A stretch of 43,238 nt of DNA from Planctomycetaceae bacterium (GTDB lineage Bacteria; Planctomycetota; Planctomycetia; Pirellulales; UBA1268). The notes beneath the pieces are model-generated. The model was not told where the DNA came from. It saw nothing but the letters and a program-made list of their open reading frames with translations, and made no database searches. The position numbers were made by a program, and so were the translations under genes. Positions 14,718-31,654 of the stretch are shown piece after piece; position 1 is the stretch's first letter; the number at the start of each line of letters is the position of its first letter. The stretch is from positions 1-43,238 of the forward strand of contig SXWA01000009.1 in the NCBI GenBank assembly GCA_005791575.1, written 5' to 3'.

Positions 14718-14871
14718 CCCGTCGGCAGGCGTCGGGACCGCCGCGGTGTGGTGGCCTTTCGCAACCCGTGAAGACGAATCCCGTGATCGGCTGCCGGAGG
14801 CGGCCGACGGCGACCTGGGAAACCCTCGGCGTTTCCCAGATCGCCAACGTGCACGAAGGCCATGGATGCCA

Positions 14872-14906
14872 GTCCATGGATGCTTTGTCCATGGATGCTT
14901 TGTCCA
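14872..14906. repeat. 15-bp tandem repeat (two copies plus 5 bp) duplicating the probable start codon
   Basis: gtccatggatgcttt at 14872-14886 and 14887-14901, then gtcca; encodes MDALS-MDALS. Confidence 0.9.
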
Positions 14907-16330
14907 CGGGCAGCGAGCGCAGCCGAGGGGGGGGTGCCGTGGCGGGTCGGTTTCCTCATCCCTGCCGCGGTCCTGCCCCGCGCCGGGAGCTGCTGCGGAT
15001 CGGCGGCCTGGGGGCGCTGGGGGTGACGCTTTGCGACCTCGCCCGGCGGATCCAGCCCGCCGGCGCGGCCGTGCCGCTCGGTCAGCCGCGGGCGCGCAAC
15101 TGCATCGTCCTCTTCCTGGCCGGCGGGCCCCCGCAACACGAGACGTTCGACCCCAAGCCAGGGGCACCGGTGGAGATCCGCGGGCCGTTCCTCCCGGTGT
15201 CGACCAGCGTGCCGGGGGTGTCGTTCTGCGAACTGCTGCCGCGGACCGCGGCCATCGCCCACCGGCTGTGCGTGATCCGGTCGATGACCACCGGGATCCA
15301 CTCCCATTCCACCAGCGGCTGTTTCATGCTCACCGGCCACGAGCCGACGAGCGTCGCCGAGAACGTGCCCGCCAGTGCCGCCGACTGGCCGAGCATCGCC
15401 GCCGCCGTGGGAGCGCTGCGGCCGGCCGACATGTCGCCGCTCGACACGGTGATCATCCCCGAGCCGCTGGTGAACAATCCCGCCATCCCCTGGCCCGGAC
15501 AGAACGGCGGCTTCATGGGGCCGGCCTGGCATCCGCACCTCCTCCGCTGCGATCCGTCGCAGGCGCGGATCGAGATCGACGGCATGATCGTGCCCGACGG
15601 GGCGGCCGGCCTGCGGCTCGGTGTGCGCCGCGGATTGCTCGAGGGGCTCGACCGGTTTCCCCTGGTCGGGAGCCCGGCGCTGGTGGAGATCGACCGCGTC
15701 CGGCGCGAGGCCTTCGATCTGCTCGGCGACGGAACGACGCGCGCCGCCCTCGAGATCGACCGCGAGCCGGTGGCGACCCGCGACCGCTACGGCCGCGGCA
15801 AGTTCGGCCAGAGCGTGCTCCTGGCGCGGCGGCTGGTGGAGGCCGGGGTGCGGCTGGTGCAGGTCAACTACCCGCGCGAGCCGGGCGACACCACCGCCAA
15901 CAATCCGCTCTGGGACACCCATGCCGACAACGCCGGGAGGCTGAAGAACGTCCTCTGCCCCGCGTTCGACACCGCCTTCGCCACCCTCGTGGACGACCTC
16001 GCCGAGCGCGGGATCCTCGACGAGACGCTGGTCGTGGCGATGGGGGAATTCGGCCGCACGCCGCGCATCAACGCCGCCGGCGGCCGTGATCACTGGGGGA
16101 GCGTGTTCTCGGTGGCGCTGGCCGGCGCGGGAGTGCCCGGTGGGGCGGTGATCGGCGCCAGCGATTCCCATGGTGGGCAGCCGACCGACCGGCCCGTCCG
16201 TCCGCCCGACCTGGCGGCGACGATCTTCACGCTGCTGGGGATTCCCCCCGCGACGGAGTTTCGCGACGGCCAGGCGCGGCCGCACACTGTGGTCAGCGGC
16301 GGCGTGCCGCTGCGCGAACTGGTGGGCTGA
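14876..16330 (+). CDS. DUF1501 family protein with Tat-like signal (stand-alone)
   Basis: PAPRRELLRIGGLGALGVTLCDLARR; NCIVLFLAGGPPQHETFDPKP; GEFGRTPRINAAGGRDHWGSVFSVALAGAGVPGG. Start ambiguous (GTG 14849, ATG 14876 or ATG 14891). Confidence 0.85.
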   Translation: MDALSMDALSTGSERSRGGGAVAGRFPHPCRGPAPRRELLRIGGLGALGVTLCDLARRIQPAGAAVPLGQPRARNCIVLFLAGGPPQHETFDPKPGAPVEIRGPFLPVSTSVPGVSFCELLPRTAAIAHRLCVIRSMTTGIHSHSTSGCFMLTGHEPTSVAENVPASAADWPSIAAAVGALRPADMSPLDTVIIPEPLVNNPAIPWPGQNGGFMGPAWHPHLLRCDPSQARIEIDGMIVPDGAAGLRLGVRRGLLEGLDRFPLVGSPALVEIDRVRREAFDLLGDGTTRAALEIDREPVATRDRYGRGKFGQSVLLARRLVEAGVRLVQVNYPREPGDTTANNPLWDTHADNAGRLKNVLCPAFDTAFATLVDDLAERGILDETLVVAMGEFGRTPRINAAGGRDHWGSVFSVALAGAGVPGGAVIGASDSHGGQPTDRPVRPPDLAATIFTLLGIPPATEFRDGQARPHTVVSGGVPLRELVG

Positions 16331-29329: not shown

Positions 29330-31654
29330 ATGGCAGGTTCTCGCCGGGGATCCGTGGGACCGCTCTTTCCACGCCGCTCCGGCCTCGCGGCGTGCTGGCT
29401 GCTCACAGCCCGTGGCCAAAGTCCATCCGTGGCCTTTGGCCACCCGAAAAGCTGCGCTTTTCAGGGGAGCTGCGCTCCCGGCACCGGATCCCTCCGGTGC
29501 AGCAGGCTGTTGATCCACAGCCTGCTGGCACTGGTGCTGGGCACCTCCTGGCAGACGTCGGGAGCTGGCGAGGTGCCCACGGCTGCCGTTGCCGGGCGGT
29601 TCATCCAGGAAGTCCCCCTCCACAGAGAGGCGTTGCCGGGGATTCCGCCCGGTTTCGTCGCCACCCGGGTGGTTGCCGTCGCCGGTGATGGCATCGTGGC
29701 GGTCGGCAATGATGGCGCCTGGCGGCTCGAGGATGGTCGCTGGAGTGCGGTTCCCGCAGCCGAACTGGCCGATCCCACCCGTGCGGCCGGCTGGCTGGAC
29801 GGCCTCGATCCGGGGCTTGTGGTCCGGCAGGCCGCCCGGCGGGACGACGGCACGACGGCCGCCGCCACCGATCGTGGCGTGTTCGAACGCGCTCCGGGCG
29901 GCGCGTGGCAAGCGCTGCAGCCGGTCGATCCGCAGGGCCTCGTTTGGGCGGCGGCCGACGTCCGTGGGGTGTGCTACGACAGCACCGGCAGCCTGTGGTG
30001 TACCACCGCCGCGGGGATCGCCCGACGGACCGGCGGCAGGTGGGACTTCTTCACCGGCCGGGAAGGGCTGCCGGTCACCGACCTGTCCCGCTGTGCCGCC
30101 GCCGCCGACGGGAGCGTGTGGTTCGGTTCCGCGAGGGGTGCGGTCCGCTGGCGGGACGGTGCCTTCGCCTACCGCCAGGGGCCGAGGTGGCTGCCGGGCG
30201 ACCGGGTCCACGACGTGGCGATCGCCGCCGATGGCACGGTCTGGCTGGCGACCGACGGTGGCCTGGGGCGGATCGAGCCGCGTGTGACGACGCTGGCGGA
30301 GAAAGCGGCCTTCTACGAGACCGAGATCGAGCGGTCGATCCGCCGCACCGGGTACGGATTCATCGCCAGCGCCGTCCTCGACCGGGCCGGCGACCCGTCA
30401 ACCGCCCGGCAGATCGACAGCGACAACGACGGCCTGTGGACGGCCATGTACGGCGCCGCCGAGTGCTTCGCGTTCGCCGTCAGCGGGGCGCCGGAAGCGA
30501 AACGCCGGGCCGACGCGGTCTTCCGGGCCCTCGCCTTCCTCCAGGACGTGACCCAGGGGGGCGACCACGCCCCGCCGCCGGGCTTTCCCGCGCGGACCGT
30601 GCTGCCGATCACCGATCCCGATCCCAACAGCGGGCAAGCCGAGCGCGACCGGCGCCTGCGGGACGGTGCCGATCCGCGCTGGAAATCGCTCGACCCCCGC
30701 TGGCCGCGCTCCGCCGACGGGAAGTGGTGGTGGAAGGCCGACACCAGTTCCGACGAGCTCGACGGCCACTACTTCTTTCTCGCCCTCTACCACGACCTCG
30801 TCGCCGCCACGCCGGAGGAACGGGCCGCCGTGGCGACCGTCGTCGCCCGGCTCACCGACCATCTCCTCGACCACGACTTCGCGCTGGTCGACCACGACGG
30901 CCAGCCGACCCGCTGGGCGGTCTATGGCCCCGCGGCGCTCAATCACGATCCGGCCTGGAGCGTGGAGCGCGGCCTCAATTCGGTGAGCATCCTCGCCTAC
31001 CTGGCGATCGCCGCGCATGTCACCGGCGCGGAGAAGTATGCCGCCGCCTCGGCGCGGCTCTGCCGCGACCACGCCTACGATGCCAACGCGATGGTGCCCA
31101 AGGTGCAGCGCGGGATCGGCTCCGGCAACCAGTCGGACGACGAGATGGCCTTCATGAGCCTCTATCATCTCGTGAACTACACCCCCGATCCGGCGCTGCG
31201 GCAGCGCTTTCTCGCCGCCTTCCACGGCGCCTGGCGGTTGGAGGAGCCGGAGCGGAACCCGTTTTTCCACGTCGCCTACGCCGGCGCGGCGGCGCCGTTG
31301 GCCGATTCGGCACCGCACCTCCAGCCGGACGGCGGGTGGCTGGCCGACACGCTCGACAGCCTCCGCCTCCTGCCCCTCGACCGGTGCTCGTGGCCGCATG
31401 CCAACGCCCATCGCGCCGACATCGTGCGGCTGCCGTCGCAGCAGTCGATCGATCTCGACCGGCGCGACGGCGCGGCGCGCGGTCTGCGGGTCGACGGCAA
31501 GGTGGTGCCGGTCGACGAGCGCTTCTTCGCGCATTTCAACCACGACCCGTGGCGCCTCGACACCGGTGGCGACGGTCGCGAACTGGCCAGCGGGACGGTG
31601 TTTCTCCTGCCCTACTGGATGGCCCGTCACCACGGCTTCATCGCCGGGGAGTGA
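29330..31654 (+). CDS. exported protein: ligand-binding sensor-type beta-propeller N-terminus and uncharacterised alpha-helical C-terminal region
   Basis: Propeller-like repeats (GLVWAAADVRGVCYDSTGSLWCTTAAGIARRTGGRWDFFTGREGLPVTDLSRCAAAADGSVWFGSARGAVRW) then YGFIASAVLDRAGDPSTARQIDSDNDGLWTAMYGAAECFAFAVSG. Confidence 0.8.
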   Translation: MAGSRRGSVGPLFPRRSGLAACWLLTARGQSPSVAFGHPKSCAFQGSCAPGTGSLRCSRLLIHSLLALVLGTSWQTSGAGEVPTAAVAGRFIQEVPLHREALPGIPPGFVATRVVAVAGDGIVAVGNDGAWRLEDGRWSAVPAAELADPTRAAGWLDGLDPGLVVRQAARRDDGTTAAATDRGVFERAPGGAWQALQPVDPQGLVWAAADVRGVCYDSTGSLWCTTAAGIARRTGGRWDFFTGREGLPVTDLSRCAAAADGSVWFGSARGAVRWRDGAFAYRQGPRWLPGDRVHDVAIAADGTVWLATDGGLGRIEPRVTTLAEKAAFYETEIERSIRRTGYGFIASAVLDRAGDPSTARQIDSDNDGLWTAMYGAAECFAFAVSGAPEAKRRADAVFRALAFLQDVTQGGDHAPPPGFPARTVLPITDPDPNSGQAERDRRLRDGADPRWKSLDPRWPRSADGKWWWKADTSSDELDGHYFFLALYHDLVAATPEERAAVATVVARLTDHLLDHDFALVDHDGQPTRWAVYGPAALNHDPAWSVERGLNSVSILAYLAIAAHVTGAEKYAAASARLCRDHAYDANAMVPKVQRGIGSGNQSDDEMAFMSLYHLVNYTPDPALRQRFLAAFHGAWRLEEPERNPFFHVAYAGAAAPLADSAPHLQPDGGWLADTLDSLRLLPLDRCSWPHANAHRADIVRLPSQQSIDLDRRDGAARGLRVDGKVVPVDERFFAHFNHDPWRLDTGGDGRELASGTVFLLPYWMARHHGFIAGE
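29409..29529 (+). repeat. 121-bp multi-hairpin element, copy B, inside the N-terminal coding region of the propeller protein
   Basis: Aligned without gaps to 5814-5934 (15 differences); encodes RGQSPSVAFGHPKSCAFQGSCAPGTGSLRCSRLLIHSLLA versus CGQSPHLAFGHSKTDGFHGSFAPGTGSLRCGRLFVHSLLA. Confidence 0.93.

What the first reader, a model, noticed from the sequence alone, without database searches (positions are those of the whole stretch)
29409..29529. Copy B of the element: divergence confined largely to loops, with a compensatory stem change
In the manual alignment there are 15 differences over 121 bp. Most fall in loops or between stems: H1 loop cacct/tccgt, H2 loop gac/tgc, H3 loop ttt/tgc, H5 loop tg/ga. 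In the H2 stem, gaaaaCc...gGttttc in copy A becomes gaaaaGc...gCttttc in copy B. The paired bases changed together (C-G to G-C), which is the signature of selection on or amplification of a structure rather than only on the peptide. H4 (gcaccggatccctccggtgc) is invariant.
Basis: seen in the sequence. Interest (0 to 1): 0.85.

Follow-up and report, generated by a model that had tools for sequence, protein, structure and literature searches.

The report
Hairpin-rich mini-transposon inside signal peptides
The repeat is one of about a hundred copies of a tiny, protein-less jumping DNA element, apparently moved by an IS1182-like transposase; in a freshwater planctomycete it lands mostly between genes or exactly on stop codons, and in this window two copies sit in frame inside the secretion signals of two proteins.

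Summary
In detail: copies A and B differ at 15 positions in the reported interval (16 in the true 119-bp element), 13 of the 16 in loops, with a real paired C-G to G-C change in H2. The element is a MITE: 119 bp, 18-bp ends CAGCCCGTGGCCAAAGTC, a 4-bp CTAG-type target duplication, often tandem with a 123-bp period. This genome has 95 exact H1 hits. The family is confined to one planctomycete family (43 of 74 genomes; none of 326 others sampled in the order). IS1182-like insertion sequences with the same ends and target occur in the same genus and family. Insertions are mostly intergenic or exactly on stop codons, where the duplication keeps the stop. Because 119+4 bp is 41 codons, some copies are read through in frame, chiefly in signal peptides; orthologues of both window genes lack the insert. 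Pairing is conserved across subfamilies, but stems also vary uncompensated, H4 is not invariant, and G-U is not favoured over A-C, so strand-specific RNA selection is not shown. It is a new variant of a known kind (MITE).

The parts
29406..29524 (+). MITE copy B, 119 bp
   Evidence: alignment with 88 full copies and blast over the own genome
29402..29405 (.). left flank CTCA, position of the 4-bp target duplication
   Evidence: sequence; does not match the right flank, so degenerate or old
29525..29528 (.). right flank CTGG, position of the 4-bp target duplication
   Evidence: sequence
29406..29423 (+). left terminal repeat CAGCCCGTGGCCAAAGTC
   Evidence: 17 of 18 identical to the end of an IS1182-like IS in the same family, L167
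29412..29443 (+). hairpin H1 (terminal repeat folded on its own inverted copy)
   Evidence: fold and pair counts
29446..29462 (+). hairpin H2, with the compensatory pair at 29451/29457
29464..29480 (+). hairpin H3
29481..29500 (+). hairpin H4, rarer of two alleles
29503..29524 (+). hairpin H5, contains the right terminal repeat
29330..31654 (+). gene with copy B in frame inside the signal-peptide region (Reg_prop repeat, otherwise unnamed)
   Evidence: translation, Pfam, orthologues without the insert
5811..5929 (+). MITE copy A, 119 bp, flanks CTTG and CTGG
5762..7285 (+). gene with copy A in frame inside the signal-peptide region (no Pfam match)
   Evidence: orthologues without the insert
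14762..14913 (-). third, degenerate copy of another subfamily, between genes
   Evidence: right end assigned by eye

Best explanation
It is a non-autonomous miniature transposon (MITE). Shown: 119 bp, inverted ends CWGYCCGTGGNNAAAGTC, a 4-bp target duplication of the CTAG type (also CTAA, CTGA, CTGG, CCAG), high copy number, tandem copies sharing one duplication, and relatives throughout one planctomycete family. Shown: IS1182-like insertion sequences in the same genus and family have the same ends and target. Inferred: their DDE transposase moved the MITE in trans. Shown: inserts survive mainly between genes and on stop codons (the target contains the stop and the duplication restores it); because 119+4 is 123 bp and two sense frames lack stops, inserts in genes can be read through as 41 extra codons, mostly in signal peptides, as in both window copies. 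Inferred: the chain of palindromes is kept at the DNA level (transposase or cruciform recognition, self-templated repair, conversion between copies) rather than by selection on one RNA strand or on the peptide.
For: Copy number: 95 exact H1 hits against 0 in the reversed control. Duplication: 26 of 56 solitary copies have identical flanking 4-mers against 3.2 by shuffling; relatives with TTAG/TTAG and TTAA/TTAA. Array period 123 bp in 18 of 20 neighbours. Partner ISs with the same ends and 4-bp duplications, IS1182 as best transposase model. Context: 44 of 69 intergenic and 9 on stop codons, against 20% and 0.1% of random positions. In-frame copies in signal peptides; orthologues without insert. 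G-U about equal to A-C.
Against: No IS1182-like transposase was found in the own genome, which is 74.5% complete, so the partner is inferred from relatives. The transposases score below the IS1182 equivalog cut-off. Both window copies have non-identical flanks. Transposition was not observed. DNA-level maintenance of the hairpins rests on a null result (no G-U excess), and elements near gene 3' ends lean to the sense orientation, 32 to 16.
Confidence: 0.88

Rival explanations
1. The paired changes come from template switching or conversion: palindromes correct their own arms during replication or repair, so both sides change in one event and no selection on structure is needed. The element is still a MITE.
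For: H2 and H4 alleles are nearly all-or-none, with few one-sided intermediates at those pairs; all four H2 x H4 combinations occur; no G-U preference.
Against: H3 pair 65/69 does show one-sided G-U intermediates (5 copies); H1 arms covary over several dinucleotide types across genera, and all hairpins persist in divergent subfamilies.
Confidence: 0.4
2. A structured cis-regulatory or non-coding RNA, spread by transposition but kept because its RNA fold regulates or protects host mRNAs.
For: Very stable RNA fold; MITE transcripts with such roles are known (PMC2229807, PMC10969869); near gene 3' ends, sense orientation is somewhat commoner, 32 to 16.
Against: G-U not favoured over A-C; no Rfam match at gathering score; elements on stop codons occur in both orientations; 5'-end copies sit inside coding sequence.
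Confidence: 0.12
3. A REP/REPIN-type palindrome moved by a RAYT (Y1) transposase.
For: Short palindromic repeats in high copy number; REPs are reported from Planctomycetes (PMC3733652).
Against: No Y1_Tnp in four genomes of the genus, one of them 97% complete; target duplications are present, which Y1 enzymes do not make.
Confidence: 0.02
4. A protein-level element, kept because the 41-residue insert benefits exported proteins.
For: Two window copies and at least five others lie in frame in signal peptides, and the insert ends in RLFVHSLL or similar, which extends the hydrophobic stretch.
Against: 13 of 42 residues differ between A and B; most copies are intergenic; one signal-peptide copy is antisense (L230); other genera often have 118-bp elements, which would shift the frame.
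Confidence: 0.03

Closest known systems
ISMac2-derived MITEs of Methanosarcina acetivorans (IS1182 family; PMC3852290, Table 4)
   Same: Short non-autonomous element with the ends of an IS1182-family IS; one of the two has a 4-bp direct repeat
   Different: 160-169 bp and 7-14 copies; no chain of conserved hairpins, stop-codon landing or signal-peptide insertion was reported in the passage read
Yersinia palindromic sequence (RU-2) and ERIC (PMC2229807)
   Same: MITEs with open frames, fused in frame to host genes, with a signal peptide partly formed by the MITE in one case
   Different: TA-type termini, and a fold by 5'-3' end pairing rather than a chain of local hairpins; different partner
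Rickettsia palindromic elements (PMC10969869)
   Same: Palindromic elements of about 150 bp inserted in frame in many genes
   Different: No IS1182-type ends or target; target duplication uncertain in RPEs (PMC2229807, Table 1)
IS1272 of Staphylococcus aureus (IS1182 family; PMC5678879)
   Same: A transposase family in which some members act on palindromes
   Different: IS1272 replaces stem-loops without target duplication; this element makes a 4-bp duplication at CTAG-type sites

Membership tests
MITE | Short, multicopy, no transposase gene | tested here: met
   119 bp; 95 exact H1 hits in the own genome
MITE | Terminal inverted repeats | tested here: met
   CAGCCCGTGGCCAAA against CAGGCTGTGGACAAA, 12 of 15
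MITE | Target-site duplication | tested here: met
   26 of 56 solitary copies with identical 4-mers, shuffled mean 3.2
IS1182-derived MITE | Ends and target shared with an autonomous IS1182-family IS | tested here: met
   17 of 18 bases with L167; CTAG, TTAG and CTAA duplications in ISs
IS1182-derived MITE | Partner transposase belongs to IS1182 by the curated model | tested here: inconclusive
   NF033551 is the best model, 182-195 bits against a cut-off of 270
IS1182-derived MITE | Mobilised in trans by that transposase | not testable with these tools
   needs a transposition assay
REP/REPIN (RAYT) | Y1 transposase in the genome | tested here: not met
   none in four genus genomes
REP/REPIN (RAYT) | No target duplication | tested here: not met
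   4-bp duplications
Known structured RNA family | Rfam match at gathering score | tested here: not met
   none; with the permissive setting only a weak sub-threshold hit outside the element

The most novel reading that the evidence does not exclude
A MITE superfamily in which a chain of palindromes, including a self-complementary copy of its own transposase site (H1), is conserved by pairing across genera because the folded DNA takes part in transposition, and whose CTAG-type target and length make stop codons and signal peptides the tolerated landing sites.
Probability: 0.3. Interest if true: 0.7.

Novelty: new variant of a known kind. Interest (0 to 1): 0.5.

Why it matters
It ties a palindromic repeat family to a specific transposase type and target, gives more than a hundred natural insertions that show where a small element is tolerated, and offers a natural set for asking whether internal hairpins of MITEs are selected, mutationally maintained or RNA-functional. 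It also shows recurrent in-frame remodelling of signal peptides, and a repeat whose tandem arrays lie at contig ends in these metagenome assemblies.

Tried and rejected
REP/RAYT: no Y1 transposase in the genus. DDE_Tnp_1 in the own genome: none; the partner was found only in relatives. The target duplication was first read as 3 bp and corrected to 4 after copies with T-initial sites were seen. Known RNA family: none. Phage and plasmid collections: no match. Selection for in-frame length in all relatives: rejected, 118-bp elements are common. No paper describing this element was found. The pair counts treat copies as independent; no phylogeny-aware test was run.

Full report
CHECK. The reported interval contains a repeat whose other window copy starts 23,595 bp upstream.

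ANATOMY. The own genome (3.84 Mb in 274 contigs, 74.5% complete) holds many copies: 102 blast matches with only 40 of 236 candidates scored, 280 terminal-repeat matches with at most one mismatch against 25 in the reversed control, and 95 exact H1 matches against 0. Copies are 119 bp, flanked by a 4-bp duplication: 26 of 56 solitary copies have identical flanking 4-mers against 3.2 by shuffling, and close neighbours are 123 bp apart in 18 of 20 cases. Duplications TTAG/TTAG and TTAA/TTAA in relatives set the length at four. The ends are inverted repeats, CAGCCCGTGGCCAAA and CAGGCTGTGGACAAA.

RELATIVES. The same architecture (terminal repeat folded on itself as H1, then two or three further hairpins, then the right end) recurs with different sequence in other genera. 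Named records are planctomycete metagenome-assembled genomes; that they are mostly from lakes is inferred from isolate names. A degenerate H1 pattern finds 43 of 74 genomes of the family and none of 326 sampled genomes of other families in the order.

PARTNER. A DDE_Tnp_1 hit in a same-genus genome has an IS end CTAG|CAGCCCGTGGCCCAAG. Relatives in the order are complete 1.47-1.5 kb ISs, typically ending CAGCCCGTTGAAAAAG...TTTTTCAACGGGCTG, with identical 4-bp duplications (CTAG, TTAG, CTAA, ATAG). In the window's family the end becomes CAGGCCGTGGCCAAAGTC, 17 of 18 identical to the MITE. NCBIfam IS1182 is the best model, below its equivalog cut-off. IS1182-family ISs and MITEs with 4-bp repeats are on record (PMC3281130, PMC3852290). 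No such transposase was seen in the own genome.

CONTEXT. With a self-trained codon model and elements removed, 44 of 69 sites in the own genome are intergenic, 9 lie exactly on a stop codon and 16 in genes, against 20%, 0.1% and 80% of random positions; in relatives 15 of 56 lie on a stop codon, against 5 of 84 unoccupied CTAG sites (p = 0.001). The target contains a stop codon and is duplicated, so the gene keeps its stop. In genes, the 123-bp insertion is often read through in the sense frames without stops: signal peptides (judged by eye, no SignalP) in window A, window B, L005, L221, L206:2311, L230 (antisense) and L198, and internal positions in L006 and L011. Some predicted intragenic sites (for example L206:1381 and L218:1162) instead introduce a stop. 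Orthologues of A in three sister species and of B in one sister species and in more distant genera have no insert.

COVARIATION. Over 76 distinct ungapped copies, 96.7% of stem cells are paired, against 34-46% when one side is slid. Departures from the majority pair are 67 two-sided Watson-Crick, 28 one-sided G-U, 21 one-sided A-C and 86 other. The two variable bases in H1, left free in the search pattern, are complementary in 86 of 104 hits against 49 expected. Pairing is therefore conserved, but without an RNA signature, and with many uncompensated changes. All four combinations of H2 and H4 alleles occur, which fits exchange between copies or recurrence. The embedded peptide differs at 13 of 42 residues between A and B.

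CONCLUSION. A MITE, most likely mobilised by an IS1182-like transposase, is well supported. DNA-level maintenance of the palindromes is the preferred but unproven reading; self-templated mutation is the strongest rival for the compensatory change itself. IS1272, an IS1182-family member, acts on stem-loops (PMC5678879), which makes a role of folded DNA plausible. In-frame MITE fusions, including in signal peptides, have precedents (PMC2229807, PMC10969869).

Noticed in passing
window 14762-14913 (minus): A third, degenerate copy from another subfamily (GGGAAACGCCGAGGGTTTCCC hairpin), with a short internal duplication, in an intergenic stretch.
   Followed up: partly
G000 contigs C43, C57, C120, C129, C189, C251, C260: Tandem arrays of the element lie at contig ends, so the repeat probably breaks the assembly.
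   Followed up: no
L065, L102, L109: About 43-bp mini-elements made of H1 plus the right end, one with matching CTCA flanks; possibly deletions between H1's 3' arm and the right terminal repeat.
   Followed up: no
L004 (array), L026:1501-1619: Flanks CGAG and CTCG, reverse complements of each other rather than direct repeats, in two loci.
   Followed up: no
loci of G000 and relatives: Unoccupied CTAG is very scarce in the own genome's loci (16 sites found in the analysed stretches).
   Followed up: no
window 163-354: Three 60-bp tandem units (CGGTGTGGCGGTGCCCGGGCC...) near the contig start, unrelated to this element.
   Followed up: no
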